From: Marinomonas posidonica IVIA-Po-181
GTDB taxonomy: Bacteria > Pseudomonadota > Gammaproteobacteria > Pseudomonadales > Marinomonadaceae
Assembly (NCBI RefSeq): GCF_000214215.1
Contig: NC_015559.1
Coordinates: forward strand, 2,715,001 to 2,779,000
Reading direction: 5' to 3'
DNA length: 64,000 nucleotides
Notes under the pieces: generated by a model
Database searches by the model: none
The model's input: only the letters and a program-made list of their open reading frames with translations
Told to the model about the DNA's origin: nothing
In this document: piece by piece, positions 2,407 to 30,569 of the stretch
Layout of the letters: the number at the start of each line of letters is the position of its first letter
How positions within the stretch are numbered: the first letter of the stretch is position 1
Position numbers and translations under genes: made by a program

Positions 2407-2441
2407 GACCAGATAATACATCTGAAATTCGTCAAGCCTTT

Positions 2442-2633
2442 TTACAGCACTTCACCAAAGAATCGCTTTAAAAAGGCTTCTGGTGGTTCTTCTGTGGAAA
2501 AGAGTTCGAAGTGAATCTGATAGCGAGGATCAACAATCGGTGTATCCGCTTCAATTTTAGTGGGTATATGGAACTGGCCTATTTTATGAAAAAAGTCACC
2601 CAGATAAAAAACCTTATTTATAATTGAAAGTTT
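2442..2633 (-). pseudogene. remnant of a T6SS effector N-terminal region
   Basis: The minus strand has an open stretch of about 60 codons reading ...VFYLGDFFHKIGQFHIP, then an almost exact match to residues about 256-304 of the intact effector at 4915-6969 (TPIVDPRYQIHFELFS followed by PPEAFLKRFFGE), ending at a stop at 2442-2444. No start or upstream domain remains. The DNA identity to 6055-6200 is high. It is a leftover of a further effector copy, marking the old left edge of the effector array. The rest of the gap 2407-2743 shows nothing else I can support. Confidence 0.8.
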
Positions 2634-2743
2634 TCATCATTTCATTTACCGCATAAAAAATAGGTCTATGATAATCACGTTATCGAAGATAGAAGCCAAT
2701 CATTTAATATGAATGGCTTTGATAGACTGGAGACTAAATAAAT

Positions 2744-3115
2744 TTATTTACCTGTAGGTTCGCAAGTTAATCTATTTTTAGGTAAATATATTTCACACCT
2801 TTGTTCTGCCCAAGGTGCAGCAACTGTGTAATAAAACCTACTAGAGCTTAGGTTAAAGTTGGTTGCATAAATTGTAGGAAAATTTTTATAGAGATTTAAA
2901 TTCTCATTACCCGTTTCACAAAATCTTTTATTTATATTTTTTTTAATATTATTAACATGGATACAAGGGTCTCCTTTTTTCAAATAAACTACATATGAAT
3001 ATTTTTCATCAACAGCTCCCATTTTATCCACTTGATAATAATAATAGTCATCAATCGATTCAGCTTTAATATTGAAGACCTGTAATAATAGTAATATTAA
3101 AAGTAATTTTTTCAC
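2744..3115 (-). CDS. small exported protein, probable immunity to the orphan lysozyme-like toxin
   Basis: A 123-residue protein with a classic signal peptide (MKKLLLILLLLQVFNIKA-ES). The start is GTG at 3115 and overlaps the stop of the preceding toxin gene by four bases (GTGA), so the two are translationally coupled. The mature part is small, basic and has four Cys (positions in DPCIHV, RFCETG, RCEIYL and LTCEPT) that could form disulphides in the periplasm. Position directly after a peptidoglycan hydrolase and export to the periplasm are what is expected of a T6SS immunity protein; I do not recognise its family. The gene is AT-rich compared with vgrG. Confidence 0.65.
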   Translation of the reverse strand: MKKLLLILLLLQVFNIKAESIDDYYYYQVDKMGAVDEKYSYVVYLKKGDPCIHVNNIKKNINKRFCETGNENLNLYKNFPTIYATNFNLSSSRFYYTVAAPWAEQRCEIYLPKNRLTCEPTGK

Positions 3116-3942
3116 TTTAAGTTTATTCCTCGTGCATCAAATCTATTTTCATCAACGTTAAATTTAGTTAACCACATTACCTTATTAGTCATTATTTCAT
3201 AGAGATTAGACGAATCACCACTAAGACTTTCTTTCAAATCCTTATAAATCGCTGGCACAATCTTCTTCCTCGTATTCCCTCGCTTATCGCCTGAACCGGT
3301 ATAATGTCCTACATAACGAAGATCGGTAATCACTTCCCTAACTTTCTCACTCAACTCATCCCAATTAAGCTCTGCCCCATCTATGTAGGCATTTCTGACA
3401 TCAAGTTTAGTGGTTAATCGTTTCGCATCATTTTCATAAAACGCATATGATTCAAGGAACAGGTAATGCTGCATTTTACGCGTAATTTCTTGCTCTTCTT
3501 TAGGCACTTTAGCGTCTAGGGTTAACCAATAATCATAAGCCGCCTGTTTTGTTTTACCTGCTCCTTTTTTAAGCCAATCTAATAATTTAGGACTGATTGG
3601 CTTGCAACTTACGGCGGCGGCATTAAAGTACTGCTCAACCTCAGAGGCTGGTTTATTACCTATGTCAAAACCTCGACCAATCGTAATACCCGAATCCTCA
3701 ATTACATTACCTGAATTATTCGGCACATGAGGCTTTCGTGTAAACATAAAGCTGGACTCAACATCCGTACCTTCTGAATCAAAAGTAAGTTGCCCCTTAG
3801 GCACCGTGAGCCACTTCTCATCCATTTCATCATCAAATGAGTGTATCGGCCACCAATTCCATACTTCTTTTGGCAGACCCAAACTGCTGGCGTCCTGCAT
3901 CCAAACTAACTCATCCACCCGCTCTTTTTCATGCTCGATCAA
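3112..3942 (-). CDS. orphan T6SS toxin tail, pesticin/T4-lysozyme-like muramidase
   Basis: This frame lacks the N-terminal delivery domain. Residues 2-33 copy the linker of the intact effector at 4915-6969 (EHEKERVDELVWMQDASSLG, then WNWWPI), then the sequence switches to a different toxin. Within it, DSEG (E57) and SGITIGRGFDIG (T87, D93) reproduce the Glu...Thr-x5-Asp pattern of pesticin-type phage-lysozyme folds, whose targets are peptidoglycan glycan strands. The frame stays open upstream through a terminator at 3981-4012. The only nearby start is a TTG at 3942 without a ribosome site, so it may not be expressed by itself. It looks like a stored cassette: toxin tail plus immunity gene displaced by the GH19 cassette. 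The muramidase call rests on the motif spacing only. Confidence 0.65.
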   Translation of the reverse strand: MIEHEKERVDELVWMQDASSLGLPKEVWNWWPIHSFDDEMDEKWLTVPKGQLTFDSEGTDVESSFMFTRKPHVPNNSGNVIEDSGITIGRGFDIGNKPASEVEQYFNAAAVSCKPISPKLLDWLKKGAGKTKQAAYDYWLTLDAKVPKEEQEITRKMQHYLFLESYAFYENDAKRLTTKLDVRNAYIDGAELNWDELSEKVREVITDLRYVGHYTGSGDKRGNTRKKIVPAIYKDLKESLSGDSSNLYEIMTNKVMWLTKFNVDENRFDARGINLK

Positions 3943-3980
3943 TTCAGCAATGTAAAGCGCGGCTGGTATATTCTCACCAC

Positions 3981-4012
3981 AAAAAAGCCAGTTACGCTTG
4001 AAGTAACTGGCT
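3981..4012 (-). terminator. intrinsic terminator after the GH19 effector-immunity pair
   Basis: On the minus strand AGCCAGTTAC, a 7-base loop and GTAACTGGCT form a perfect 10-bp stem followed by six U. It closes the vgrG-effector-immunity transcript just before the orphan toxin cassette, cutting that cassette off from the upstream promoter. Confidence 0.85.
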
Positions 4013-4043
4013 CTGTAATAAAGATTTATGTTCTCTGATCTAT

Positions 4044-4928
4044 TTAATATTCATCAAACGCATGATCTTGTAGGCATTGCTCACGACGTACCACCTGCCC
4101 CCCTTCGCTAATACTAAATTCACCGTGGAAGCGGAGGCTTTCTGAGTCTGAAGTCGTTCTATGATTTTCAAAAGCAAAGGTTTTATCATCACCATTAAAT
4201 TTAATGCCATTCACAACATACTTTTTCCCATCTTTTTTATAAGGTCGATCTCCATCTTTAAACTCGCTACTCGCTACACTAAAACGATATTGATCATTAC
4301 CTTGTTTATCCAATCTAAAATCTGCTGACTTCAATTTTCTGAAAGTAAACATAGAAAAAAAACGACGAGGCGATGCACAAATTGTGGCAATTTCTCCGCT
4401 TTCAAAAGTACATTTGGCAAGCAGTAACTTTCCACTCTCACAAGGAGGTCGTATTTGATCGCAAGCATAATCTTCAACATTTTTTAGCGTAAATATATGC
4501 TGTTTCGATATGGTGTAATAATCATCCGTTTTTTCACTCGTAAACACACTTTCAAACTTCTTCAACGGATTAAGATTAGAATCAAATATATACAAATAAT
4601 TATAATCGGATATATCAATCCTACTACCCTGCTCATCTCTTCCCGAAGTATTCAGCATTACCACTGGATAAGAATCATTACCACAGGTTAATACTTTATT
4701 ATATTGAGTGGTAGTAGGCATGCTATCATGAATAAAAAAATGAGTTTTTTTACTCTCAAATCTAATATAAACACTCTGAAAGTTATCTGGCATAGCTCCA
4801 CCAGGGAAAGACTTATCCAACTCTGAAAACTCATCTTTCTTTACTTTTTCAACCCGAATATCCCAATCGTTTGCCCATACAATATTTATTGAAAAAAGAC
4901 TAATTAACAACCATTTAAAATGCTTCAT
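4044..4928 (-). CDS. exported protein, probable immunity to the GH19 effector
   Basis: A protein of about 294 residues starting at the ATG at 4928, chosen because it opens a signal peptide (MKHFKWLLISLFSINIVWA-ND) and overlaps the effector stop by 14 bases. A longer in-frame start at 4991 would put 21 extra residues inside the effector gene and spoil the signal peptide. The mature protein has several Cys (VLTCGND, DYACDQIRPPCESG, LAKCTF, TICAS, REQCLQD), fitting a periplasmic fold with disulphides. Its position directly after a peptidoglycan-cleaving effector and its export suggest that it blocks that enzyme in the periplasm. No known family recognised. Confidence 0.7.
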   Translation of the reverse strand: MKHFKWLLISLFSINIVWANDWDIRVEKVKKDEFSELDKSFPGGAMPDNFQSVYIRFESKKTHFFIHDSMPTTTQYNKVLTCGNDSYPVVMLNTSGRDEQGSRIDISDYNYLYIFDSNLNPLKKFESVFTSEKTDDYYTISKQHIFTLKNVEDYACDQIRPPCESGKLLLAKCTFESGEIATICASPRRFFSMFTFRKLKSADFRLDKQGNDQYRFSVASSEFKDGDRPYKKDGKKYVVNGIKFNGDDKTFAFENHRTTSDSESLRFHGEFSISEGGQVVRREQCLQDHAFDEY

Positions 4929-6969
4929 TAAATATCCCATCATTATAATAAGAAGAAAAATTATCTCTCCTTTCCTTTTTAGATTTTTCACTAGTTCCTG
5001 AGTTTATAATTTTTGTAACATTATCTACTATGGTGCCACTACTACCTTTATCAGCCTTTTCCCATATCGCATTATCCAACCAAAATATACCAGCACTTCG
5101 TACAGCATATTTGATTTGAAGAAGCAGATCTGGATTGGCTTCAAAGTCGATATTCTCTTCAGGCCATAGAATATTATATACTCGACTTGCATTACGATAA
5201 TTTTTCTTACCAGTTAACTGAAAAATACCACGCCCACGATATCTCCATCCGTCACCAGAGGCTATGTTGCCATTACCATTTCTATTTGCATAAGCACGAT
5301 TCGCTATTTGTTCTGGGTTTGATGAATGTCCACCTTCTCCATCAACTCTTCCATATAAATCAGCCTCTCTTGGGTTATCCCTAAAATATTTGAATGGGCC
5401 CCTTCCCTTATCCTTATCCTTCTGCTTTAACTTCTTTGCGCTATAGTGTAAGTTTTCTTCTAAGCTAAAGCCCTTACCCGCTTCCTTTTTAGCCTGAGCC
5501 AAAAAGTGATTTAACCTTAAAAGAGTATCTAATTTTAACGTGGCGGATATTTCATTAATCTCATCTGCCACCGCTTCCAAGTCCTCAATATCGACAAGAA
5601 ATACAAAGTCATCGTCTTTTTCGTTCCACACTAACCTCAACATCTCTTTAGTAATATAACAACCCGGTTTAAATGCCATACCAGTACCTATCGGCCACCA
5701 ATTCCAAACTACTTTTGGCAAACCCAAACTACTGGCTTCCTGCATCCAGATCAGTTTATCCACTCGCTCTTTTTCATGATCAATCAGTTTTTCAAAATTA
5801 GAACTGTCAACTATTCCTAATATGGTTTGCCAAACAGTCTTGTCTGCTGCTTTGTCATACCATTCGCTAGCGTGTTTATGGTACATATATTGTGCACTGT
5901 CCCACTTGGATAAATTTTTAGCTATCTCTGTGCCAGGGACATCACTTTCATCCAAAGTCACAATTTGGTGGAAGTTTTTAAAAAAGCCATTTGGTTTATT
6001 CCGGTCTAAATAGCCGTCCGAGTCATCATCACCTTCCACTTTTTTAACTTTATCTAGGTTGGCTTCACCAAAGAATCGCTTTAAAAAGGCTTCTGGTGGT
6101 TCTTCAGTGGAAAAGAGTTCGAAGTGAATCTGATAGCGAGGGTCAACCACCGGCGTATCCGCTTCAATTTGAGTAGGTATGTGGAACTGACCAAGGTAGC
6201 CAATGGCGTCACCGCCCTTTATATCAATTTGTTCAGCGCCGCTCAACTCGATAAGAGCACCTTGTTTTACCGTCGTTGCATCGATGGTTTTGACTAAGTC
6301 CTCGTCCACACACAACCAGGTTTCAGCAATACTACTGCCTCCAGAGTTTAATGGAGGCTCCAAAGTACAACGAGCAAAGTGCCGAACCTTCATACCAAAC
6401 GCTTTGGGTTTAAGCTGTCTTGGATCATATTTGAACTTCTGTCCTTTACTAACAGCGTAATTAGCTTTCTCCATGCTGTCGGTACGGCAAGATAGCCCGT
6501 CCTCATCAGTAACTTCAGCGGTTATTTCAGTATAAAGCCAATTCGGCAATTTAAAACCGTTAACCTGTTCAAAAATCTGCTCTTCTGCTAAAGGAGCCAG
6601 ATGCATGTATAGGGAAAAAAAGGTAAAAGTTTTTGTTTGATCATCTTCTGTATAGGAAAATTTATGTTGTAATAAACAAAAGTCTCTAGAATACGGCAAT
6701 TCAATACCGCGATATACCGATGTTGAATACACATTATTAACACGGTAAGCCACCACCTTTCCATCCGCAATTGCCATAATCGGATGGTCTTTCTGACAAT
6801 GAGGCGCGTTTTTTAACGAGAGATGCATTCCTCCGTGCCAAGAAGAATTACCTGGATTAAAGCCATATTGACCGGCCACTTCTTTCTGAAGCTGGGTCTG
6901 CAATTCATTACCATCTTCATAAACATGGCCATTAGGCTTAGGCACAGGGTAAACAAACTTCATCGTCAT
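4915..6969 (-). CDS. T6SS peptidoglycan-hydrolase effector, M23-like N-terminus and GH19 C-terminus
   Basis: 684 residues in three parts. Residues about 1-150 resemble an M23/LytM fold (WHGGMHL, IMAIADGKVVAYRV, LYMHLAP), but the zinc motifs look degenerate, so this may be a delivery or binding domain. Residues about 150-330 are SH3-like and end in a conserved IHFELFSTEEPPEAFL segment. Residues about 391-424 are the linker shared with the orphan cassette. Residues about 480-680 are a glycoside hydrolase family 19 domain: the glutamates of AKKEAGKGFSLEENL, then GNGNIASGDGWRYRGRG and FQLTGKKNYRNAS. GH19 enzymes of this type act as muramidases or chitinases; a T6SS setting implies attack on the rival's cell wall. 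It lies 20 bases after vgrG1 and overlaps its immunity gene. Confidence 0.85.
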   Translation of the reverse strand: MTMKFVYPVPKPNGHVYEDGNELQTQLQKEVAGQYGFNPGNSSWHGGMHLSLKNAPHCQKDHPIMAIADGKVVAYRVNNVYSTSVYRGIELPYSRDFCLLQHKFSYTEDDQTKTFTFFSLYMHLAPLAEEQIFEQVNGFKLPNWLYTEITAEVTDEDGLSCRTDSMEKANYAVSKGQKFKYDPRQLKPKAFGMKVRHFARCTLEPPLNSGGSSIAETWLCVDEDLVKTIDATTVKQGALIELSGAEQIDIKGGDAIGYLGQFHIPTQIEADTPVVDPRYQIHFELFSTEEPPEAFLKRFFGEANLDKVKKVEGDDDSDGYLDRNKPNGFFKNFHQIVTLDESDVPGTEIAKNLSKWDSAQYMYHKHASEWYDKAADKTVWQTILGIVDSSNFEKLIDHEKERVDKLIWMQEASSLGLPKVVWNWWPIGTGMAFKPGCYITKEMLRLVWNEKDDDFVFLVDIEDLEAVADEINEISATLKLDTLLRLNHFLAQAKKEAGKGFSLEENLHYSAKKLKQKDKDKGRGPFKYFRDNPREADLYGRVDGEGGHSSNPEQIANRAYANRNGNGNIASGDGWRYRGRGIFQLTGKKNYRNASRVYNILWPEENIDFEANPDLLLQIKYAVRSAGIFWLDNAIWEKADKGSSGTIVDNVTKIINSGTSEKSKKERRDNFSSYYNDGIFNEAF

Positions 6970-6989: not shown

Positions 6990-8954
6990 CTAACCTGAGA
7001 AACTAAAATCACTGCTTGTGATCATATCTTCAAGTTCATCCGCTTCATAAGTTTCCGATCCAATATTCACCTCAGGCCCCACTAAATACACGCCATCGGC
7101 ATTAATGGTAATGAAGCTTCCCCCGACTTTCACGGTTAATTCAGCTCCAGCTTCCACGACGGTAAGATCCCCACTTTGTAGCTGTATATCTTCCCCTGCT
7201 TCGGTCACGGCGATCTCACCGACTTGCTGCTGCAAGCTGCCTTCGACTATGTGGGTTTGGTCTAAGGTGACCTTGCTACGACGTTCCCCTTTGACCGTGA
7301 TGTGCTGGTTGTTTTTCACTTCACTGAAGCTGTCGTTAACCACACTCAGGTGTTGGTCGTTACCGATGCTTGTGGTCTGGTCATGTAACACGTCGGTTTG
7401 CAGGTCTTTTTGGGCGTGCAGGTAGACTTGTTCTTGACCTACTTGATCTTCGAAGCTGATTTCGTTAAATCCGGCCCCTTGGTGGGTTTGGCTGCGCCAC
7501 ACGGTTTTGGTTTTGTTCGCCGGTAAGGCGTAAGGCGGTAAGTTGTCAGCGTTGTAGGTTCGACCGGTAATAATGGGTTGGTCTGGGTCGCCGTTGAGGA
7601 AGCTGACGATGACGTCGGTGCCAATACGTGGCAGCGCGATGGTGCCGTATTGGCTGCCCGCCCAGCTTTGGGAGACTTGGACCCAGCAGGAGCTGAAGTC
7701 GTCTTTTTGTCCGTAACGGTCCCAAGCAAATTGGATTTTCACTCGACCGTGTTCGTCACAGTAGATTTCTTCTGGGGTGTCACCATCGTTGGCCGCAGGC
7801 CCCACCACGGTGGCCATCATGGGGCCATCAACACTGGGTTGCGGTTGTGGCGTTGCCTGCCAGTTCACTTGGCCCGGGATCAGGGTAAAGTGGTTTTGGT
7901 AGCTGGTCTGGCCTTCGCCCCCTTCTTCTTCGAGGACTTGTGGTTGGGTGCCATGGTGTTCGACTTGAACAGGGATCCAGCTGTTGTCTTGGATGCTGGC
8001 GTCGAAGTGACCGGCAATGCGTATTTTGCGGCCAACGAGGATCGCTGAGGCGTCGCTGTCACCGGTCAGTAGGTGAGCTCGACGGCGCAAGTATTCTAAA
8101 CGGATGCGGGCAAAACGTTGGCCAGTGGCGTTGTCTTTAAAACGGCCTGGGGCATCAAAGTGTTCGTAGAGGCTCAGTTGATGTTCTAGGTTGGTCCCTG
8201 TGTGCTGATTCAAGGCCGCGTAGCCGGGTTGCTTGAAGCTGTAGTCTTTTAGGGTCGACTGACTGGGTAGGGATTGTTTGTGTTCACTGAGCGCGTTGAT
8301 GTAAGGGGTTTCGGAGACGCCCGCGGTGAGTAAGTTGTAGGCAATGGCGTCGTTTTGTACGGCTAAAGCTTGGCTCTTGTCGATGAAGTGTAAGGTGTGT
8401 TTGCCTGCTTCGTGGCTAAAGTAGTAGACCCAGCCTTCTTCGGCGGCCAATCGATGTAGGAAGTCGGCGTCAGTTTCACGGTATTGAACGCAGAACTCCC
8501 GTTCTTTTGGTTCTTCGTTTTCCAAGGTGAACACAGGGGCCGGCATGTCCATGTCGGTGATCAATTGGGTGAGGATGTCTTTGGCGCTTTGTTTTTGGAA
8601 GATGCGGCTGTTATGGCGTAACGACAGTCGCTCTAACGCGGGCACTAGGGTCAAGCCGTAAAAGGTGTAGTTGTGGCCGGTGTCGCCTTTTTCAAAGTGG
8701 CGGACGATACCATGCACTCGGTGAACCAGTTCACCATCACGCCAGACGGTTAATTCTGCTTGCTTGTCGACGATGGTGTCCGCAGACAAGTCCATACGAC
8801 GACTGGCTAAGCTCAGCTGATAACGGAACCCATAGCAAGTGGTCCCATCGTCTAATGTGGAATCCGAGAGAGAGTCTTGGCCTCGGTACTCTCGTACCAG
8901 CAAGGTGTTCTCATCGAGGCCGTCAACGGCCAGCTTAAACATTAACGTCGCCAT
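6990..8954 (-). CDS. vgrG: VgrG spike protein 1 (TssI)
   Basis: 654 residues. The trimeric T6SS spike: the first 360 or so residues are the gp27-like base (VEHHGTQPQVLEEEGGEGQT near its end), then the gp5 OB-fold with YCDEHGRVKIQFAWDR and CWVQVSQSWAG, then the beta-helix. Residues 1-588 are almost identical to the other two VgrGs here, and only the last 66 differ (from EDIQLQSGDLTVVEAG on). That tail should seat the next gene, the GH19 effector, 20 bases downstream. AAGGAG precedes the ATG. No hcp lies directly in front: the gene sits 107 bases after vgrG2 in a tandem copy, so it probably depends on the hcp promoter at 11703. Confidence 0.95.
   Translation of the reverse strand: MATLMFKLAVDGLDENTLLVREYRGQDSLSDSTLDDGTTCYGFRYQLSLASRRMDLSADTIVDKQAELTVWRDGELVHRVHGIVRHFEKGDTGHNYTFYGLTLVPALERLSLRHNSRIFQKQSAKDILTQLITDMDMPAPVFTLENEEPKEREFCVQYRETDADFLHRLAAEEGWVYYFSHEAGKHTLHFIDKSQALAVQNDAIAYNLLTAGVSETPYINALSEHKQSLPSQSTLKDYSFKQPGYAALNQHTGTNLEHQLSLYEHFDAPGRFKDNATGQRFARIRLEYLRRRAHLLTGDSDASAILVGRKIRIAGHFDASIQDNSWIPVQVEHHGTQPQVLEEEGGEGQTSYQNHFTLIPGQVNWQATPQPQPSVDGPMMATVVGPAANDGDTPEEIYCDEHGRVKIQFAWDRYGQKDDFSSCWVQVSQSWAGSQYGTIALPRIGTDVIVSFLNGDPDQPIITGRTYNADNLPPYALPANKTKTVWRSQTHQGAGFNEISFEDQVGQEQVYLHAQKDLQTDVLHDQTTSIGNDQHLSVVNDSFSEVKNNQHITVKGERRSKVTLDQTHIVEGSLQQQVGEIAVTEAGEDIQLQSGDLTVVEAGAELTVKVGGSFITINADGVYLVGPEVNIGSETYEADELEDMITSSDFSFSG
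7293..8954. repeat. direct repeat, copy 1 (vgrG1 body)
   Basis: About 1.66 kb of vgrG1 is nearly identical, in the same orientation, to 9356-11017 in vgrG2. Differences are scattered single bases, and identity ends at the tail switch near HITV(K/N)GE. Recombination between the copies would delete about 2.06 kb and fuse the hcp-linked start directly to the GH19-carrying tail. Confidence 0.85.
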
Positions 8955-9061: not shown

Positions 9062-11017
9062 TTAGTCAGACGCAATGGTACTGTCGGTAAAACCAGACCC
9101 TACCGCCGCCTCACCACCTTCATTAAAGGTCACGTTAGCACTCATTAACTGAATGCCGTTTTGATCTATGGTGATGTAATTCCCGCCAGCTTTAATAGTA
9201 ATGGCTTGCTTGGCTTCTAGAATGGCCTTTGCGCCACTTTTTAAATGAATTTCTTGTGCGGCTTCTAGGCGATTAACTTGAGTTACCTTGCGATAAAAGT
9301 TTGCCTCTGAAATCGAAGTATCCTGTTTCAGTACTTTTAACTGACATTCGCCATTCACTGTGATGTGCTGGTTGTTTTTCACTTCACTGAAGCTGTCGTT
9401 AACCACACTCAGGTGTTGGTCGTTACCGATGCTTGTGGTCTGGTCATTTAACACGTCGGTTTGCAGGTCTTTTTGGGCGTGCAGGTAGACTTGTTCTTGA
9501 CCTACTTGATCTTCGAAGCTGATTTCGTTAAATCCGGCCCCTTGGTGGGTTTGGCTGCGCCACACGGTTTTGGTTTTGTTCGCCGGTAAGGCGTAAGGCG
9601 GTAAGTTGTCAGCGTTGTAGGTTCGACCGGTAATAATGGGTTGGTCTGGGTCGCCGTTGAGGAAGCTGACGATGACGTCGGTGCCAATACGTGGCAGCGC
9701 GATGGTGCCGTATTGGCTGCCCGCCCAGCTTTGGGAGACTTGGACCCAGCAGGAGCTGAAGTCGTCTTTCTGGCCGTAACGGTCCCAAGCAAATTGGATT
9801 TTCACTCGACCGTGTTCGTCACAGTAGATTTCTTCTGGGGTGTCACCATCGTTGGCCGCAGGCCCCACCACGGTGGCCATCATGGGACCATCGACACTGG
9901 GTTGCGGTTGTGGGGTTGCCTGCCAGTTCACTTGGCCCGGTATCAGGGTAAAGTGGTTTTGGTAGCTGGTCTGGCCTTCGCCCCCTTCTTCTTCGAGGAC
10001 TTGTGGTTGGGTACCATGGTGTTCGACTTGGACAGGGATCCAGCTGTTGTCTTGGATGCTGGCGTCGAAGTGACCGGCAATGCGTATTTTGCGACCAACG
10101 AGGATCGCTGAGGCGTCGCTATCACCGGTCAACAGGTGAGCACGACGGCGCAAGTATTCTAAACGGATGCGGGCAAAACGTTGGCCAGTGGCGTTGTCTT
10201 TAAAACGGCCTGGGGCATCAAAGTGTTCGTAGAGGCTCAGTTGATGTTCTAGGTTGGTCCCTGTGTGCTGATTCAAGGCCGCGTAGCCGGGTTGCTTGAA
10301 GCTGTAGTCTTTTAGGGTCGACTGACTGGGTAGGGATTGTTTGTGTTCACTGAGCGCGTTGATGTAAGGGGTTTCGGAGACGCCCGCGGTGAGTAAGTTG
10401 TAGGCAATGGCGTCGTTTTGTACGGCTAAAGCTTGGCTCTTGTCGATGAAGTGTAAGGTGTGTTTGCCTGCTTCGTGGCTAAAGTAGTAGACCCAGCCTT
10501 CTTCGGCGGCCAATCGATGTAGGAAGTCGGCGTCAGTTTCACGGTATTGAACGCAGAACTCCCGTTCTTTTGGTTCTTCGTTTTCCAAGGTGAACACAGG
10601 GGCCGGCATGTCCATGTCGGTGATCAATTGGGTGAGGATGTCTTTGGCGCTTTGTTTTTGGAAGATGCGGCTGTTATGGCGTAACGACAGTCGCTCTAAC
10701 GCGGGCACTAGGGTCAAGCCGTAAAAGGTGTAGTTGTGGCCGGTGTCGCCTTTTTCAAAGTGGCGGACGATACCATGCACTCGGTGAACCAGTTCACCAT
10801 CACGCCAGACGGTTAATTCTGCTTGCTTGTCGACGATGGTGTCCGCAGACAAGTCCATACGACGACTGGCTAAGCTCAGCTGATAACGGAACCCATAGCA
10901 AGTGGTCCCATCGTCTAATGTGGAATCCGAGAGAGAGTCTTGGCCTCGGTACTCTCGTACCAGCAAGGTGTTCTCATCGAGGCCGTCAACGGCCAGCTTA
11001 AACATTAACGTCGCCAT
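9062..11017 (-). CDS. vgrG: VgrG spike protein 2 (TssI), no cargo of its own
   Basis: 651 residues, the same base and OB-fold regions as the neighbouring VgrGs, but the last 95 residues (from about 557, NGECQLKVLKQDT) are unlike either. No adaptor or effector gene follows; the next gene is vgrG1. Its own cargo was probably lost or replaced when vgrG1 plus effector arrived. It could still form hetero-trimers with the other two, since their bases are the same. It lies 106 bases after hcp, with a hairpin between. Confidence 0.95.
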   Translation of the reverse strand: MATLMFKLAVDGLDENTLLVREYRGQDSLSDSTLDDGTTCYGFRYQLSLASRRMDLSADTIVDKQAELTVWRDGELVHRVHGIVRHFEKGDTGHNYTFYGLTLVPALERLSLRHNSRIFQKQSAKDILTQLITDMDMPAPVFTLENEEPKEREFCVQYRETDADFLHRLAAEEGWVYYFSHEAGKHTLHFIDKSQALAVQNDAIAYNLLTAGVSETPYINALSEHKQSLPSQSTLKDYSFKQPGYAALNQHTGTNLEHQLSLYEHFDAPGRFKDNATGQRFARIRLEYLRRRAHLLTGDSDASAILVGRKIRIAGHFDASIQDNSWIPVQVEHHGTQPQVLEEEGGEGQTSYQNHFTLIPGQVNWQATPQPQPSVDGPMMATVVGPAANDGDTPEEIYCDEHGRVKIQFAWDRYGQKDDFSSCWVQVSQSWAGSQYGTIALPRIGTDVIVSFLNGDPDQPIITGRTYNADNLPPYALPANKTKTVWRSQTHQGAGFNEISFEDQVGQEQVYLHAQKDLQTDVLNDQTTSIGNDQHLSVVNDSFSEVKNNQHITVNGECQLKVLKQDTSISEANFYRKVTQVNRLEAAQEIHLKSGAKAILEAKQAITIKAGGNYITIDQNGIQLMSANVTFNEGGEAAVGSGFTDSTIASD

Positions 11018-11123: not shown

Positions 11124-11642
11124 TTAGGCTTCGATTGGTTGAGTCCAATCATCCGCACCAGATGTTCCAGAAGAAACATGATCCCAAGTGATTTTACGAT
11201 ACGCAAGGGATACTGTTAAGTTCTGTGTGAAAGACTCATTAGATGGGTCTAGGCAGTGTGGCATTTCGCATTCGATGTCCACAATCACAGCACCTTCTAA
11301 TGAGGTTGTGAAGAAGTTTTCTTGCTTGCCTTCAGAAGACGTGCGGTACCATTTCAATTCCACATTTGACAGTTTTTCACCGGCAGACAAGGCGTTGTAA
11401 AGTAATGGTACGGCTTTGTTTAGAGCCACGGTGAATTTAAACGGTTTGTGAACACGTTTACCAGATGGGCTACCTGATTGTGGGTTCGTTGGTACGGTGA
11501 CATTATGCAAGAACTGTTGTACTAGCATTTCATCTTCGTGACCTTCCAAACCGATTTCACCAGTAGAATCCACTGTCATGGCACCAGCAGTAATCAGTCC
11601 CTGTGTTTCCCCTTGAATCGAAATATAACACGGCGTTGGCAT
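11124..11642 (-). CDS. hcp: Hcp tube protein, left copy (TssD)
   Basis: 172 residues with the Hcp opening MPTPCYISIQGETQGLITAG, the extended loop HNVTVPTNPQSGSPSGKRVHKPF and the closing strand YRKITWDH. Hcp rings stack into the tube that is shot by the sheath and can also carry small effectors. The protein is identical to the copy at 35605-36123. AAGGAA lies ahead of the ATG, and a sigma-54 promoter is 60 bases upstream. First gene of the left hcp-vgrG2-vgrG1-effector unit. Confidence 0.97.
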   Translation of the reverse strand: MPTPCYISIQGETQGLITAGAMTVDSTGEIGLEGHEDEMLVQQFLHNVTVPTNPQSGSPSGKRVHKPFKFTVALNKAVPLLYNALSAGEKLSNVELKWYRTSSEGKQENFFTTSLEGAVIVDIECEMPHCLDPSNESFTQNLTVSLAYRKITWDHVSSGTSGADDWTQPIEA

Positions 11643-11702
11643 AATCTAATTCCTTATAAGTAATAAAAGATTGAAAAGTGTCATAAACACTTATCTTTCT
11701 AT

Positions 11703-11718
11703 AGCAAATCCAATGCCA
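11703..11718 (-). promoter_or_regulatory. sigma-54 promoter of the left hcp
   Basis: On the minus strand TGGCATTGGATTTGCT fits the -24/-12 consensus (TGGCAC-N5-TTGCW) with the correct GG-GC spacing. Transcription should start near 11691, giving a leader of about 50 bases. It matches the known control of hcp by the sigma-54 activator VasH, which is encoded in this cluster. Confidence 0.85.
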
Positions 11719-11777
11719 GAAAAAATATCCATATAAATCAGTATGTTAAAAATCAGCAAGTCGATTAAGCAATTTAT

Positions 11778-11801
11778 CGCCTTGATCTTAGGCGGTTTTT
11801 T
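11778..11801 (+). terminator. hairpin with U-run facing the core operon, left arm
   Basis: CGCCT-TGATCTT-AGGCG followed by GTTTTTT. It would stop rightward transcription coming out of the hcp region. The mirrored copy is at 35446-35469. It might equally act as DNA structure behind the sigma-54 promoter. Confidence 0.5.
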
Positions 11802-11811
11802 GCTTGCTGGG

Positions 11812-11900
11812 CAAAGGATTGCTTAACTGTCCCGCCATCATAAGATGCCGGACAGTTAAGACGCTTCCCACACGAATCATCTCGTTAGAAAGATCCTTTG
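11812..11900. repeat. nested palindrome between hcp and tssM
   Basis: An outer pair CAAAGGAT (11812-11819) / ATCCTTTG (11893-11900) encloses a strong inner stem CTTAACTGTCC (11822-11832) / GGACAGTTAAG (11850-11860), whose arms nearly continue towards the loop. It begins exactly where the inverted-repeat arm ends. It could end the tssM transcript, although no clear U-run follows, or be a small palindromic element. The other arm has no counterpart. Confidence 0.6.
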
Positions 11901-11954
11901 TCAGAGCAGATTCTCTCCATTCCGCTCGATTCAGAAGACTTATTCGCTCCTTCC

Positions 11955-14900
11955 CTAGTACAAAGTGTCCGATAAACTGAAAGATTTGAATAAATCGCGT
12001 GTAAACGGGTTTACTTCTTTCTCTGTGTTCACTCGTATTTCCATTAAACCCTCATCAATACTAAACTGATAGGTCACATTTGAAACACTCGAACTCACCA
12101 CATTTGCCATACCCAGTAAGCGGAAAAAAGCCCAAGGTCCTGAGGAGTCGATACTCCTTGGAGAAAAGTTAAGCTGTGTTGGTACCAGCGTCATCTTAGA
12201 AAGAGCAGTATCTCCTAAGGTATTTGGCCATACCATTTCGACGTTATTCCTAGGTCCATGACTGTATGAAAGATTTTGGCCATCAACATTTAACAAACCT
12301 CTTCGTTTATTGGCCGTCAAGTTAACAGGCTCAATTCCGAAGGATACGTCTAAAACGCCTTTCCTATTAAAGAATGCATCTTGAATCAATTTAGCTTGAT
12401 CCAGCTGAGCCAATACATCATCACGAATAAGAGACTTGCCTTGCAATTCGCCGCTTAGCTCTAAGTTTTCTTCAATAAACATTTTAAGCTGATTGCTGTA
12501 GAACTGATCTAACGTACCATTTGGCGCAAAGAATTTTTCAAAGTCTTGCAGTGACACATCGCTATTAGCATCGGCACGGAAAGGGTATTTACTCGCGAAT
12601 TTTTGTTCATAGACTTTATAAATATCATTATGCCACCTTACTTCCAGATAACGGATGGCTTCCTGTTTAATGACATACCAACTTTGATTTGCCAATTTAG
12701 TTAACATGGAGTCAAGCGGTTTCGGCAAGCCTGCTGAAATCCTGTTCAATGTATAAATCGGATCAACACTGTTCAAAGACGTTCTAGCTTTTGTTGTCTC
12801 AAGTGCCGCTCTACCAACATCAGGTGCATCCTGAATGGCTTTCAGATAGGCTTTTAACTGATCAATCGCGACGACCACTTCATCTATGTTAGCAGGCTTA
12901 TCGTCACTGGCTTTGATCATGCCGTTCAAATCAGAAAAAGGAGCATTGATTTTAAGGGCGATATTGTACTTAGTGCTTTTCTGTAGCTCTTCTAACGCTA
13001 CTCTATCCTCTGGCAATTCAGGGAAAATATTCGTGTTATCGTCTAAAGCAGATAAAAACCGTATGATTGGCTGCGAGTTACCGGTTAGGTTCTCTAACAC
13101 GTTTACGGCTTCATTAATGTCTTTAAAATCTTTAATTTCAAAACCATTAACCGCTGAACGCCATGAATTAGTGTAATCCGCAACATAAGACGCTCGGATT
13201 TTCTCCTTCAATGCTTGCTTATCAGCCTCACTAAACCGAGCTGTCTCGGTTTGGCCAAGTACCCAACTATCAATCAAAGCCAGATCAGAAACAGATTCCG
13301 AGCTCGGTAAGAAGTAATTCTCAAAGCCCTTTTTAGATAACATGGCAGGAATTCGTAACTTACTTGAGTTGCCCCTTTGATCAAACACCAATGGAAAAAC
13401 TGGCCCAATTAAGTTACTCATATCTTGGTCTGTACCAAGTTTGGTTTGCGCGGTTAATTTAAGGTTTCTGTAGACACGCTCATCAATAGAAAGGGCACCT
13501 AATTCAGCCTGAGTAGAGGCAATCAGCTTTTCATAAGGCTTAAGAACCGCTATGGCATTATTGTCTCCTCTCCCCCTTAGCGTCTCAAGGTCAGTATGTT
13601 GTAAGGCGTATTCAAGATGTTGCAATAATTTATCTTGAACCTCTTTCATTCCAGAAAACCGAACCTGCCACTTTCGCGAAAAGTAATTGAGAACAAAGTC
13701 GTCATATCGACCACTTTTATCAACAAGCATTCGATATACCCTAAGGACAGCAAGCTTATCTTCATCACTTTTGGCTTTCTTTAGATCAACGACAAGATCA
13801 GCCATGAGAGAAGGAAGGTATTTAAACTCCAATAAATTCAAGTAAGTAATTTCAACCTGGGGACCGATCAGATGACCTTGATATAGTCCTAAATCGGAGA
13901 TATAACGTGGCTTATCGCGGAAAAAACCGAATTCTAACGTCGCATCTCGAATGGTATTAAGTGGTGGAAGTATCTCTTCTTGAGAAGTAAGAGATGCCCC
14001 TACAGGGAAATCTTTTAAATAGTTATTTACTTTACTAATAACAGCATCAGACTGATGAATATTCTTTTCATAAAATCTATGCCATGAAGCCGCTAGTAAT
14101 ACGGTAACCATACTGCAAACTAAGATACTGGTTAACATGATGCGGCGTTTTTGCTTTGCCACACGAAAGTTATCCGATGCAAGACCAGCTTCAGGGTAAA
14201 TAATTTTATTAAATAGGCTCTTTGTAAAATAGGTCGTTGAATTTTTAGCGTTCTGGGCTTTATTAATGGCATGGGTGAGTCCATACCTTCTTGAAGCCGC
14301 ATCATCAAAAGCATTGGTTGGAACACCCTGTTGATAAACAGACGCAAAATAGACCCCCCTCACCAAGGGTGAAGTTGAAAAACGATCACTGCTTAACGCA
14401 TCTTCAAAAAAGTTGGATAATACTTCTTTAAGACCACTAATTTGGCGAGTAAAGCTGTATATCGCATTTCGGTCTTCATCCTCAATACTTTCAGAAGCCA
14501 ACTGTGGGAAAATAGCATTCACATAATCAATGAAAGCGTTATATTCTTTATCAAATTCACTTAACCAGGAATCATGGCTTTCAACTGAATCAAGGCTGAA
14601 AGTAAAGCCAAGTACATCATCTCTTTGGTCTTTTTTATAGTTACTAAAAAAGGCTTCAAAACCATATAACAAATCAAGCTTGGTGAGAGCGACATAGACA
14701 GGAAGACGGGTAGATAATGTTTCCATTAGCTCCCTGATTCGAGATCTTAAAATGGTTGCGTAAGCTTTTCTTTCATAAACTGTCGAGGTGGCTAGCTTAG
14801 AAATATCAATCGCTAATACGATACCATTCAAAGGGCGTTGACTGCGTGTTTTCTCAAGCCATGTGAGAAAGTGTAGCCATAAGCCCTTCTCAACTTCCCC

Positions 14901-15503
14901 ATCAGAGTCACTTCCCGTTAAATTTAGTCCTTGCGTTAAAATCTCACCGTCCGGATCGATTAACACCGACTTATCACCCACCCACCAATCAAAAGAGTAA
15001 GTATTCTTGCTTTTTATGCCTGAAGATTTAAGAACAGTCGAAAAAGTATAATTCTGACCTGAGCGGTTTATAAGGCTTGTTTTACCTGCATTCTCAAGCC
15101 CCATAACAAGATACCAAGGTAGGCTATACAGATAGTTACGCTTATTAAGACTGTCCTTTAAACTAAAAATTACTTTATTTAAATCGTCTTCTTGATTCTC
15201 TACAGCAGCTTGAACAGGGTCCTCTTTTAATACCTCTTGATGTTCAACTTCGGCTTTGAATTTTGAAAATTTTCGCCACTGATAAACGCCCCATAATGCA
15301 CAGCATGAGAGGGAGAACAGACCCATACAAACTAAACGATTAGAAACACTAACGAATGGAAATTCATTATTAATCTCTAACCAAGGTCCCATCCACCAAA
15401 TAGCAATATTGACTAGAACAATGATTAAAAATACGAGAAAAGGTAAGGCCACCTTAAAACTTGAACCTAACTTACCAAATAAAGCCTTAATAAACTTAAA
15501 CAT
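11955..15503 (-). CDS. tssM: TssM (IcmF/VasK), inner-membrane T6SS channel
   Basis: 1182 residues, the usual size. Two N-terminal membrane helices (residues about 19-41 and 58-80), a cytoplasmic NTPase-like domain with the P-loop GLENAGKTS near 130, a third helix near 452 (ILVCSMVTVLLAASW), then a long periplasmic part ending in the beta-rich C-terminal domain that meets TssJ. With TssL and TssJ it makes the envelope-spanning membrane complex. Last gene of the core operon, 14 bases after tssA. AT-rich compared with the vgrG units. Confidence 0.96.
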   Translation of the reverse strand: MFKFIKALFGKLGSSFKVALPFLVFLIIVLVNIAIWWMGPWLEINNEFPFVSVSNRLVCMGLFSLSCCALWGVYQWRKFSKFKAEVEHQEVLKEDPVQAAVENQEDDLNKVIFSLKDSLNKRNYLYSLPWYLVMGLENAGKTSLINRSGQNYTFSTVLKSSGIKSKNTYSFDWWVGDKSVLIDPDGEILTQGLNLTGSDSDGEVEKGLWLHFLTWLEKTRSQRPLNGIVLAIDISKLATSTVYERKAYATILRSRIRELMETLSTRLPVYVALTKLDLLYGFEAFFSNYKKDQRDDVLGFTFSLDSVESHDSWLSEFDKEYNAFIDYVNAIFPQLASESIEDEDRNAIYSFTRQISGLKEVLSNFFEDALSSDRFSTSPLVRGVYFASVYQQGVPTNAFDDAASRRYGLTHAINKAQNAKNSTTYFTKSLFNKIIYPEAGLASDNFRVAKQKRRIMLTSILVCSMVTVLLAASWHRFYEKNIHQSDAVISKVNNYLKDFPVGASLTSQEEILPPLNTIRDATLEFGFFRDKPRYISDLGLYQGHLIGPQVEITYLNLLEFKYLPSLMADLVVDLKKAKSDEDKLAVLRVYRMLVDKSGRYDDFVLNYFSRKWQVRFSGMKEVQDKLLQHLEYALQHTDLETLRGRGDNNAIAVLKPYEKLIASTQAELGALSIDERVYRNLKLTAQTKLGTDQDMSNLIGPVFPLVFDQRGNSSKLRIPAMLSKKGFENYFLPSSESVSDLALIDSWVLGQTETARFSEADKQALKEKIRASYVADYTNSWRSAVNGFEIKDFKDINEAVNVLENLTGNSQPIIRFLSALDDNTNIFPELPEDRVALEELQKSTKYNIALKINAPFSDLNGMIKASDDKPANIDEVVVAIDQLKAYLKAIQDAPDVGRAALETTKARTSLNSVDPIYTLNRISAGLPKPLDSMLTKLANQSWYVIKQEAIRYLEVRWHNDIYKVYEQKFASKYPFRADANSDVSLQDFEKFFAPNGTLDQFYSNQLKMFIEENLELSGELQGKSLIRDDVLAQLDQAKLIQDAFFNRKGVLDVSFGIEPVNLTANKRRGLLNVDGQNLSYSHGPRNNVEMVWPNTLGDTALSKMTLVPTQLNFSPRSIDSSGPWAFFRLLGMANVVSSSVSNVTYQFSIDEGLMEIRVNTEKEVNPFTRDLFKSFSLSDTLY

Positions 15504-15517
15504 ACTACGTCCCTACA

Positions 15518-16927
15518 CTAATCAAAAGAAATACTATTCTTTAGACGCTTTAAAAAAATTGGATCCCATTCAGAAACACGCATTTCTGAAACTTGCTTAA
15601 ACATAAATTCGAACTGTTGCGAAGCAATATCTTCTGCACCACTTTCCTTAAGCATCTCCGAAGAAATGAGCCTAAGTTGATAAATGTCTTTTTGACAACT
15701 TGCTTCAGAAATTTTCACATCAAGATATTTCAGCGCCTCCTGAAGCCCCCTTTCTAAAAACACCTCATTAGCTTCCACTTTTATAGAATCCAACTCTTCA
15801 GAATTTGATATTAAAGAGGAACTTACGTCATTACTTTTAGCAGTTAACCAATCAGCACAATCCTCAGAAACAAAAGGCGTCCCATCTTTAAAAGTCAGAT
15901 CATATATCTGAGGGAATTTTCCGATGAATCTCTTTGTTTCAGAAAATACCGTTTCAGAAATTTCATGCAGACCTAGGGAATCTGAAATCAAGAAACTTAG
16001 ATACTGCCCATCAATCCAAAATGGCGCCATAACAATAGTGGACTCAACACGTTCCCATAATTCATACGTTGGATTTTCAAGCAAAGAAAAGTATTCTGCT
16101 ATACGCTCTTTTGGGAGAGCCTGAATAAGTGTTTTATTCTTATTAGAATCAGGCAAGGACTTAATAGAAGACCACAAGTTAAAGCGTTTCAAACGTAATG
16201 CTAGTGACGCATATTCATCGCCATGTTTAACGATATCAATCACTTCTGAAATTTTTTTACGACTTTCTTTTTCTGAGGAAGCTGAATTATTATATTTAAT
16301 GACATCATCTTTTTTCTCTTGTGAAACTTCCTTAACATCACTTTTTGCGTCTAACTCAGCTCTGCTTTTTTCATCACTAAACTTGGATTTAATTCTTTTA
16401 TACAGAAGGTCAGCTTGTTCGGAGAAAATTTCATTTAGAGACAGTGAATCTTTTAGTTCATCATTAACTTTAAAAATTTCATCAAAAAAAGACAATTCAC
16501 AATCAAGATCCATTTTTGAATCGATGAACAAATCTATTTTTTTAAATATTTTATCCAGAACTCGAATCTTATACCTTTTTCCAGCAGCCCCTTCTTTCTT
16601 GGGGTAACAAAGCGACCAATAAAAAGAAACAAAATCTGAAATTACGGATAAAGCCAAATAAAATGAAACGATATTATTCCTTCTTTTACAGCACTCTATA
16701 AAATAATCAATTAAGATAATATCTTTTGTCTTTTCATTTAAAAGTATGATCAGGTTCTCTTCAACTTTATCCCATTTAACAGAGCCATGGGAAAGCGAAC
16801 CAACTTTCATCATCTCTTCTTCTATGAACTCATAGAGAGAGTCAGACGAAAAATCATCTCCTTCCAATATATCATCAGATATAGGCCGCTTTATTTTTGA
16901 CCTTATCTCTTCGGCATCAAAAATCAT
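15518..16927 (-). CDS. tssA: TssA (VasJ type), sheath/baseplate cap protein
   Basis: 469 residues. The N-terminus has the ImpA-type opening (IKRPISDDILEGDDFSSDSLYEFIEEEM), and the C-terminal part has the VasJ-type WERVESTIVMAPFWIDGQYL and NPTYELW segments. The middle (about 190-225) is charged and probably flexible. TssA proteins help baseplate assembly and guide sheath polymerisation. It lies between vasI and tssM as VCA0119 does in V. cholerae. Strongly AT-rich. Confidence 0.85.
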   Translation of the reverse strand: MIFDAEEIRSKIKRPISDDILEGDDFSSDSLYEFIEEEMMKVGSLSHGSVKWDKVEENLIILLNEKTKDIILIDYFIECCKRRNNIVSFYLALSVISDFVSFYWSLCYPKKEGAAGKRYKIRVLDKIFKKIDLFIDSKMDLDCELSFFDEIFKVNDELKDSLSLNEIFSEQADLLYKRIKSKFSDEKSRAELDAKSDVKEVSQEKKDDVIKYNNSASSEKESRKKISEVIDIVKHGDEYASLALRLKRFNLWSSIKSLPDSNKNKTLIQALPKERIAEYFSLLENPTYELWERVESTIVMAPFWIDGQYLSFLISDSLGLHEISETVFSETKRFIGKFPQIYDLTFKDGTPFVSEDCADWLTAKSNDVSSSLISNSEELDSIKVEANEVFLERGLQEALKYLDVKISEASCQKDIYQLRLISSEMLKESGAEDIASQQFEFMFKQVSEMRVSEWDPIFLKRLKNSISFD

Positions 16928-16930
16928 AAA

Positions 16931-17560
16931 TTACCAACCACACCTATTATAATCAGGCCCCATACTTCCCTTTAGATTTGATGCTAAAAAAACAAGATTA
17001 TTAACTCCAACATCACTCGAATTTAAAATAACCTCTTCATTAGAAAGAATATATTTAATGTAATTAGAGGCAACCTTACCTCTTGATGAAGAAAGGACAA
17101 ATCCCGTATCGTCACTCCTCCACATGGTATTTTGATAGCCATGGAGTGACACCTTAACCCGCCCCTCTTTAATGGCCTTCTTCGTTATTAAATCGAGTCT
17201 ACTGATACTATCAACACAGCTAATCATGAGGATTGGATAATCATCTTTAACATCATAATTAATAGAGGGTAAAGTAATGTATAAATCCAAAGAATTATCT
17301 TTAAATTCAATTATTGGCAAATGGTCATCGTTTCTTTTCTTCTCTATTTTTTTAGCCATTAACCACGACTTTGGTTTTTTATAAAATTCATTTAGATTTT
17401 CCTCTTGTGGGGGGAAAACCTCGTCATAACACTTAAGCCGATTGAGATTGCTCACAATATTCTTACAGGACTTTATTTTCAAACTGTCATCAGCGGCATA
17501 GAGTTCAGAATTAAAATTAATCAGAAAAATAAAACACACAATAAAATAGCTATTTTTCAT
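16931..17560 (-). CDS. vasI: VasI/TagO-like exported T6SS accessory protein
   Basis: 209 residues with a signal peptide (MKNSYFIVCFIFLINFNSELYA-AD). The family signs are the N-terminal pair of Cys in IKSCKNIV and RLKCYDE and the C-terminal YNRCGW, with VSLHGYQNTMWRSDDTGFVL in the middle. Its place between vasH and tssA matches vasI (VCA0118). Its start overlaps the vasH stop by one base (TAATG). The precise role of VasI in secretion is not settled. Confidence 0.8.
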   Translation of the reverse strand: MKNSYFIVCFIFLINFNSELYAADDSLKIKSCKNIVSNLNRLKCYDEVFPPQEENLNEFYKKPKSWLMAKKIEKKRNDDHLPIIEFKDNSLDLYITLPSINYDVKDDYPILMISCVDSISRLDLITKKAIKEGRVKVSLHGYQNTMWRSDDTGFVLSSSRGKVASNYIKYILSNEEVILNSSDVGVNNLVFLASNLKGSMGPDYNRCGW

Positions 17561-19107: not shown

Positions 19108-19109
19108 GA

Positions 19110-21704: not shown

Positions 21705-21734
21705 GATATATCCCTTTTCCTTGTGATTTTAAAA

Positions 21735-22538
21735 CTACAATCTTAAAATTTGACTTAGTTGATCAAGTACATCTTGCGATTTGGTGTTCAATAAAAAATA
21801 GTAAAATAAATATATTGCGACCCAACCAATCGAAAATACCATAAAGATTAACCACACTGGTATTTGACGTCTTAACTTATATCTTTTGTTTACGACAGCT
21901 TGCGTTGGCGAACTTAATGACACATTTTTATCATTAATATTTTCTAGCAAACTGTGCAGTTTGTTTATTATTTTTTCCCTTTCCTCTTTGCCATTTTTCA
22001 TAACCTTAAACTTACCTTGAAAACCCAGTATCAAACACTGATAAAGGAATTCTAATAATTCCTTATATCGAGTCGGATCTTTTTCAAGCCGAGTCATGAT
22101 CTCAAAAACCTTTTCACCACCCCAGGTTTCGTTATGGAACCGAGAAAGCATTGAGTACTGAGCCCAAATAGAATCACCACCCCAATTGGTTCCCATTACG
22201 GCTTCGTCTAAAAAAACACATAGAATATATCTATATGCCATTAGCACTGTATGGTCATAACCTTTTTCAGTAAGCTCAATTTCAGTGATGTTGATTTCTT
22301 CTATTGTTTGTTTATAGATTTCATCAATATTAGGACAATCACTTAATGTTTTAACTCGAAGTGAAAGAGCAAAAAAGTTAGTTGCTGAATCAATAAAAGG
22401 ATTATCGGTATGCCCTCTTATTTGAAACCAATAATCTTTATCCTTATTTATATTTTCGGCATCATCAAATAATAAATCATCGTATAATCCAGATTTCTTA
22501 TCAGAATTCTCATCATAGTCCATCATTTCTTCACTCAT
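21735..22538 (-). CDS. tssL: TssL (DotU/VasF), membrane-complex subunit
   Basis: 267 residues from the ATG at 22538, preferred because AAGGGA lies eight bases ahead; an earlier in-frame ATG at 22559 falls inside tssK. The cytoplasmic hook domain (NPFIDSATNFFALSLRVK, then LCVFLDEAVMGTNWGG) is followed by a single C-terminal membrane helix (WLIFMVFSIGWVAIYLFYYF). There is no peptidoglycan-binding OmpA extension. It partners TssM and TssJ. Confidence 0.95.
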   Translation of the reverse strand: MSEEMMDYDENSDKKSGLYDDLLFDDAENINKDKDYWFQIRGHTDNPFIDSATNFFALSLRVKTLSDCPNIDEIYKQTIEEINITEIELTEKGYDHTVLMAYRYILCVFLDEAVMGTNWGGDSIWAQYSMLSRFHNETWGGEKVFEIMTRLEKDPTRYKELLEFLYQCLILGFQGKFKVMKNGKEEREKIINKLHSLLENINDKNVSLSSPTQAVVNKRYKLRRQIPVWLIFMVFSIGWVAIYLFYYFLLNTKSQDVLDQLSQILRL

Positions 22539-22540
22539 GA

Positions 22541-25863: not shown

Positions 25864-25865
25864 AA

Positions 25866-29037: not shown

Positions 29038-29059
29038 GAAACATCTCCATTATCAGATT

Positions 29060-30538: not shown

Positions 30539-30569
30539 GTTTCTTCTCTGTAAGCAAGTTATAAAATAG

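What the first reader, a model, noticed from the sequence alone, without database searches (positions are those of the whole stretch)
3112..4928. Stored toxin-immunity cassette behind a terminator, joined by a shared linker
The intact effector ends in a GH19 enzyme. After its immunity gene and a strong terminator comes a second toxin tail of a different lysozyme class that begins with the same linker (about 30 residues, high DNA identity: 3845-3942 against about 5690-5793), plus its own immunity gene. Recombination at the linker would replace the GH19 toxin by the pesticin-like toxin while the old immunity gene remains. This is the orphan-cassette layout known from polymorphic toxins, here for two cell-wall enzymes.
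Basis: partly seen in the sequence, partly recalled or inferred. Interest (0 to 1): 0.75.

Follow-up and report, generated by a model that had tools for sequence, protein, structure and literature searches.

The report
Displaced toxin cassette behind T6SS effector
Behind a working cell-wall-cutting weapon gene, this marine Marinomonas bacterium keeps the broken-off toxin end and the antidote gene of a different, apparently earlier weapon; the arrangement is known from other bacterial toxin systems but seems not to have been described for this effector class, and we find it in several unrelated bacteria.

Summary
3112-3942(-) is a headless pesticin-type lysozyme tail. It begins in frame with 33 residues that also end the delivery domain of the intact effector 4915-6969 (101 nt, 85%). 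It is followed by its own immunity-type gene and lies behind a strong terminator.

(2) The array is longer: a third WHIX fragment (2450-2579, 93% to 6063-6192) lies behind the orphan. (3) A simple crossover at the linker would delete the GH19 immunity gene, not keep it. (4) The linker is a poor recombination substrate (longest exact run 18 nt).

The predicted alternative fusion exists: WHIX-pesticin genes occur in Marinobacter, Stutzerimonas, Citrobacter and others. Headless WHIX-tail cassettes behind complete or near-complete WHIX effectors recur in a second Marinomonas, Ewingella and Aeromonas simiae; Hafnia has a row of them. Two E. coli plasmids share WHIX DNA at 97% but carry different toxin-immunity pairs, with homology breaking at the WHIX/toxin joint.

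Best reading: an orphan left by C-terminal displacement, as in Rhs, CDI and Vibrio T6SS arrays. Known kind, apparently new for WHIX. Expression and toxicity untested.

The parts
4915..6969 (-). Intact T6SS effector, 684 aa: WHIX delivery domain (about aa 1-430, WHGGMH at aa 44-49) plus GH19/endolysin-like peptidoglycan hydrolase tail (about aa 435-684)
   Evidence: WHxxxH motif and profile match over the WHIX region; tail to PDB 8xcl E 3e-25
5689..5789 (-). 3' end of the WHIX coding region in the intact effector; direct repeat shared with the orphan
   Evidence: repeat D2, 85% over 101 nt; covered by the WHIX profile
4044..4928 (-). Putative immunity gene of the GH19 tail, 294 aa, starting inside the end of the effector gene; N-terminus reads like a signal peptide (by eye)
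   Evidence: relatives directly behind both GH19 WHIX modules in G042
3984..4014 (-). Intrinsic terminator between the intact pair and the orphan cassette
   Evidence: 12-pair stem and T-run; about -18 kcal/mol
3844..3944 (-). WHIX 3'-end remnant opening the orphan cassette, in frame with the toxin tail
   Evidence: 85% to 5689-5789; WHIX profile positions 506-540 of 548, E 2e-8
3112..3843 (-). Orphan pesticin-like muramidase tail, without stops, family-invariant residues kept
   Evidence: PF16754 E 1.4e-8; alignment A4; model pLDDT 94.6 and best PDB fold match pesticin
3898..3900 (-). In-frame start codon of the orphan with ordinary Shine-Dalgarno strength (ATG, would give 262 aa)
   Evidence: anti-SD duplex -5.4 kcal/mol, against about -4 to -9 for most genes of the window
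2744..3115 (-). Orphan immunity gene for the pesticin-like tail, 123 aa, GTGA overlap with the toxin stop
   Evidence: family found behind the same toxin in G009, G028, G036, G037
2450..2579 (-). Second WHIX relic (headless and tailless), 43 codons, behind the orphan immunity gene
   Evidence: 93% to 6063-6192, E 8e-52; WHIX profile E 6e-8
6990..8954 (-). VgrG directly upstream of the WHIX effector, likely carrier
   Evidence: Phage_GPD E 9e-77, Gp5_trimer_C
9062..11017 (-). Second, closely similar VgrG
11124..30607 (-). T6SS cluster: Hcp, TssM, TssA-like, sigma-54 activator, ClpV-type ATPase, FHA protein, TssG, TssF, TssC
   Evidence: Pfam hits

Best explanation
The segment 2744-3944 is a displaced (orphan) toxin-immunity cassette. 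An earlier effector at this T6SS locus was a WHIX delivery domain fused to a pesticin-like muramidase, followed by its immunity gene. Incoming WHIX-GH19 DNA with its own immunity gene and terminator recombined within the WHIX coding sequence and was inserted in front, so the last WHIX codons, the old toxin tail and the old immunity gene were pushed downstream without start or delivery domain. The WHIX fragment at 2450-2579 is a trace of another such event. Shown by sequence: the shared in-frame WHIX end, the exact domain joint, different tails, separate immunity genes, the terminator, WHIX-pesticin fusions elsewhere, recurrence of the layout, and a cassette exchange at the same joint between E. 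coli plasmids. Inferred: the order of events, that the toxin tail is normally silent, and that the retained immunity gene, if expressed, protects against kin that still fire the pesticin tail.
For: Joint: all carriers of this toxin family enter homology at the same DDEMDxKWLTVPKG boundary, and in the window it follows the WHIX end WNWWPI, in frame. WHIX-pesticin genes in other genera. Same layout elsewhere: Ewingella L067, full WHIX-GH19-like gene and immunity gene, then headless WHIX-tail-pesticin and immunity gene (94.7% over 476 nt, exact run 140); Aeromonas simiae L056, WHIX copies 98% identical over 1617 nt with GH19-like and then pesticin tails, the second copy lacking the WHIX start; Hafnia L058, a row of three WHIX-tail remnants with different tails; second Marinomonas G042/L019, full effector, 386-aa orphan, then a 129-aa relic. 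Direct exchange: E. coli plasmids L086/L087 share 2,046 nt at 97% up to ...WHMHPLVFLDAI, then unrelated toxin and immunity genes, then 99% identity again; Citrobacter L065 and an E. coli plasmid share 88% WHIX DNA that stops 18 nt before the toxin. Published displacement model for T6SS immunity arrays: PMC5361080.
Against: No relative carries the pesticin tail on this exact Marinomonas WHIX subtype (2 of 50 family genomes have the subtype, both with GH19), so the ancestral fusion is inferred from other genera. The two WHIX ends are old relative to each other (dS about 1), so the event cannot be dated and a duplication followed by 5' loss is not excluded. No expression data; a plausible ATG with Shine-Dalgarno signal exists at 3900. 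The orphan search started from the pesticin tail, which biases which orphans were seen.
Confidence: 0.77

Rival explanations
1. Stored cassette: the orphan is a reserve toxin that is switched on by recombination at the linker, replacing GH19 by the pesticin tail.
For: The fusion would be in frame; such switching is shown for Salmonella rhs (PMC3967940); Ewingella has a repeat long enough for it (476 nt, 94.7%, exact run 140).
Against: In the window the repeat is 101 nt at 85% with a longest exact run of 18 nt. The crossover would delete the GH19 immunity gene, so cells would become sensitive to their siblings.
Confidence: 0.12
2. Stand-alone second effector: the headless gene is expressed from ATG 3900 or an internal start and its product is delivered on its own.
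For: Frame without stops, family-invariant residues kept, ordinary Shine-Dalgarno energy at ATG 3900, 4-nt coupling to the immunity gene; [quoted passage not shown]
Against: Terminator directly upstream; no promoter above chance; the reading frame carries an in-frame WHIX remnant with no evident use; G042 modules 2 and 3 carry an extra stretch that takes their N-terminal remnant out of frame.
Confidence: 0.12
3. Tandem duplication of one operon followed by 5' loss and later tail replacement, without import of a foreign cassette.
For: G042 modules are 88-90% identical to each other and carry the same GH19-type tail, so duplication probably does occur in this lineage.
Against: In the window the tails belong to different enzyme classes and the immunity genes are unrelated; the WHIX ends have dS about 1. 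Duplication alone does not create a new tail.
Confidence: 0.1

Closest known systems
Orphan rhs-CT/rhsI cassettes (Salmonella LT2, PMC3967940; C-terminal displacement of rhs, Jackson 2009 as cited in PMC5361080)
   Same: Headless toxin tail with a stretch of the main gene's conserved region, own immunity gene, located downstream of the main pair
   Different: Carrier is WHIX, not Rhs; toxin is a cell-wall enzyme; shared region far shorter and more diverged here (101 nt at 85% against 522 bp at 95%)
T6SS orphan immunity arrays by sequential effector displacement (Vibrio cholerae, PMC5361080)
   Same: T6SS locus, new effector-immunity pair in front, old immunity gene retained behind
   Different: Here a complete old toxin tail is also retained, with an in-frame remnant of the delivery domain
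WHIX effectors (PMC12135965)
   Same: WHxxxH delivery domain; tails include chitinase/GH19-like and pesticin-like enzymes; neighbouring genes encode immunity-type proteins
   Different: By word search that paper does not mention recombination, and its 'orphan' passages are about effectors encoded away from T6SS genes
Pesticin-like evolved VgrG3cp/TsiV3cp of Vibrio cholerae (PMC9927483) and VgrG-pesticin of M. balearica (G009)
   Same: Pesticin-like muramidase with an immunity gene directly behind; VgrG plus PG-binding carrier in G009 and G028
   Different: Carrier differs; the window's copy has lost its carrier
TseP of Aeromonas dhakensis (PMC11893102; PDB 8xcl by my identification)
   Same: C-domain homologous to the tail of the intact effector (E 3e-25); the glutamate region aligns
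   Different: Amidase activity of the N-domain was not tested here

Membership tests
WHIX class of T6SS effectors (for 4915-6969) | WHxxxH motif in the first region | tested here: met
   WHGGMH at aa 44-49; conserved among full-length relatives
WHIX class of T6SS effectors (for 4915-6969) | Bipartite conserved domain with C-terminal extension | tested here: met
   Own profile from ten such proteins matches both regions, E 1e-136 (the window protein is one of the ten); a published WHIX profile was not available
WHIX class of T6SS effectors (for 4915-6969) | Encoded in a genome with a T6SS | tested here: met
   Hcp, two VgrG, TssM, ClpV-type, TssF, TssG, TssC in the window
WHIX class of T6SS effectors (for 4915-6969) | WHIX-dependent secretion | not testable with these tools
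   needs a secretion assay
Orphan toxin-immunity cassette (Rhs/CDI/T6SS kind) | Toxin tail downstream of the main pair with a remnant of the main gene's conserved region | tested here: met
Orphan toxin-immunity cassette (Rhs/CDI/T6SS kind) | Own cognate immunity gene | tested here: met
   Same gene family behind the same toxin in four other genomes; neutralisation not tested
Orphan toxin-immunity cassette (Rhs/CDI/T6SS kind) | Same tail on a full-length carrier elsewhere | tested here: met
   WHIX-pesticin in at least seven full-length genes; not on this WHIX subtype
Orphan toxin-immunity cassette (Rhs/CDI/T6SS kind) | No translation start of its own | tested here: inconclusive
   TTG 3942 has no Shine-Dalgarno signal, ATG 3900 has one of ordinary strength
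Orphan toxin-immunity cassette (Rhs/CDI/T6SS kind) | Recombination with the main gene yields an active fusion | not testable with these tools
   18-nt longest exact run makes it unlikely to be frequent
Pesticin-like muramidase (PF16754) | Profile above gathering score | tested here: met
   35.3 bits against 25.8
Pesticin-like muramidase (PF16754) | Catalytic T201 and D207 of pesticin kept | tested here: met
   Both align to the invariant T and D of the SG-T-GRG-D stretch in the family profile and in the orphan; the E178 equivalent was not assigned
GH19-like hydrolase (tail of 4915-6969) | Homology to solved GH19/endolysin/TseP-C enzymes | tested here: met
   no Pfam model reached E 0.1

The most novel reading that the evidence does not exclude
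WHIX effectors form a cassette system of their own: toxin-immunity cassettes are swapped at the 3' end of the WHIX coding region, displaced cassettes accumulate behind the gene as arrays, and mobile plasmids carry and spread WHIX genes that differ only in the cassette.
Probability: 0.5. Interest if true: 0.55.

Novelty: new member of a known kind. Interest (0 to 1): 0.42.

Why it matters
WHIX was named in 2025 as a polymorphic T6SS effector class, but how its tails change was not addressed in the passages I could search. The window, with Ewingella, Aeromonas simiae, Hafnia and a second Marinomonas, shows headless cassettes left behind, and the E. coli plasmid pair shows a clean exchange at the same joint. 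This puts WHIX beside Rhs and CDI as a carrier with a fixed exchange point, makes the displacement model testable on cell-wall enzymes, and warns annotators that short 'pesticin' genes behind WHIX effectors may be remnants.

Tried and rejected
Search for the pesticin tail on the same Marinomonas WHIX subtype: none. Class-wide survey with a WHIX-tail profile (370 genomes): only four genomes with matches, too few for a frequency of orphans. Plasmid DNA search with the A. simiae gene: no match. Rfam on 2400-7100: nothing. AlphaFold of the whole effector: mean pLDDT 48, not usable for the WHIX end or the GH19 tail. The similar AT-rich stretches at the start of the G042 orphans and beside the window relic were considered as a shared insertion signal; AT-rich and only two cases, not pursued. 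Frame splits in WHIX genes of Stutzerimonas RM2 and Enterobacter ENT03 were checked as a possible programmed frameshift: small indels at different sites, so mutation or sequencing error.

Full report
Setting. From 30607 down to 11124 on the minus strand runs a T6SS cluster with Hcp, followed by two similar VgrG genes and the effector 4915-6969.

The intact effector. Its N-terminus carries WHGGMH, the WHxxxH signature of the WHIX delivery domain (PMC12135965). A profile built here from ten proteins with this motif matches the window protein in two blocks, up to position 446 of its open frame. Its tail matches PDB 8xcl at E 3e-25, and phage endolysins; I take 8xcl to be the TseP C-domain. The next gene, 4044-4928, is the immunity candidate; relatives of it lie behind both GH19-type modules of G042.

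The orphan. Behind a 12-pair terminator comes a frame that opens with 33 codons shared with the WHIX end (28 identical residues; 85% over 101 nt) and continues into a pesticin-like domain (PF16754). The domain joint is exact: toxin homology in all carriers begins at DDEMDxKWLTVPKG, and here this follows WNWWPIHSF. The tail is intact: no stops, residues invariant in 26 relatives kept, a confident model (pLDDT 94.6) whose best PDB fold match is pesticin. Its immunity gene overlaps the stop by four bases, as in four other genomes.

A third layer. 2450-2579 is a further WHIX piece, 93% identical to 6063-6192, with neither head nor tail. It has dS 0.28 to the intact gene, against about 1.0 for the orphan's WHIX end, so the pieces probably have different histories.

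Relatives. In the genus the same toxin family rides on VgrG with a PG-binding-like stretch (G009, G028) and on another N-terminus (G036, G037); G037 also has a headless toxin half plus immunity gene behind its full copy. G042 is the only other of 50 genomes with this WHIX subtype; it shows full effector and immunity gene, then a 386-aa WHIX-tail-GH19 orphan and immunity gene, then a 129-aa relic. In the collection of 84,980 species genomes the toxin is found on full-length WHIX in Marinobacter, Stutzerimonas, Atopomonas, Citrobacter, P. chengduensis and Aeromonas sobria. Headless WHIX-tail cassettes occur in Ewingella (behind a full WHIX-GH19-like gene, the same order as in the window), Aeromonas simiae (copy 98% identical over 1617 nt but without the WHIX start) and Hafnia (three remnants).

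Exchange seen directly. Two E. coli plasmids (L086, L087) share 2,046 nt at 97% up to ...WHMHPLVFLDAI, then carry unrelated toxin tails and immunity genes, and then share 495 nt at 99%. A Citrobacter gene and an E. coli plasmid gene share 88% WHIX DNA that stops 18 nt before the toxin. So tail plus immunity gene is exchanged as a unit at the WHIX end. When both flanks recombine, the old cassette is replaced; when only the WHIX side does, the old cassette is expected to stay behind as an orphan, which is the two-mode model proposed for Vibrio (PMC5361080).

Between direct repeats it would not: 4044-4928 lies between them and would be lost, as was noted for Salmonella rhs (PMC3967940). The repeat here is also short and diverged (longest exact run 18 nt). 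I therefore read the segment as the product of a past replacement, with retained immunity as the likely benefit, and give reuse as a reserve toxin a low probability. Expression is open: no promoter exceeds chance, but ATG 3900 has an ordinary Shine-Dalgarno energy.

Novelty. Orphan cassettes are known for Rhs, CDI and Vibrio T6SS. For WHIX I found no description: three library papers hold the word, and the founding paper has no mention of recombination, its 'orphan' passages being about effectors encoded away from T6SS genes. The library is incomplete, so this is a limited check.

Noticed in passing
L084 (6.2 kb Enterobacter plasmid), L086 (6.7 kb E. coli plasmid): WHIX effector-immunity pairs sit as the main cargo of small plasmids (Rop or Mob genes) with no annotated T6SS genes, reminiscent of colicin plasmids.
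   Followed up: partly
L087 6411-7244 (E. coli IncF plasmid): The record's gene call covers only the pesticin end ('calcium sensor EFh'), whereas frame translation shows one open frame running from the WHIX start.
   Followed up: partly
window 1-51 and 1261-1310: The start of the lldD-type gene (1246-2406) is partly repeated (80% over 50 nt) ahead of a 349-aa unknown ORF 9-1058, as if that ORF had been inserted with a repeat of the gene start.
   Followed up: partly
L020 about 7000-9000 (Marinomonas MED121): Dense array of about 28-nt repeats at about 60-nt spacing next to the pesticin effector, CRISPR-like, with the repeats read as ORFs.
   Followed up: no
L059 about 3660-3720, L064 about 3670-3690: WHIX genes of Stutzerimonas RM2 and Enterobacter ENT03 are split by small indels at nearby but different sites.
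   Followed up: yes
L088 (Photobacterium damselae conjugative plasmid): Hcp, VgrG and a 960-aa WHIX-type protein (37% identity to the window effector) with small genes behind it travel on a conjugative plasmid.
   Followed up: no
L019 9478-14765 (G042): Four tandem copies of a 320-aa protein gene with very similar C-terminal parts and variable N-termini, each preceded by a small variable gene, next to the VgrG fragment.
   Followed up: no
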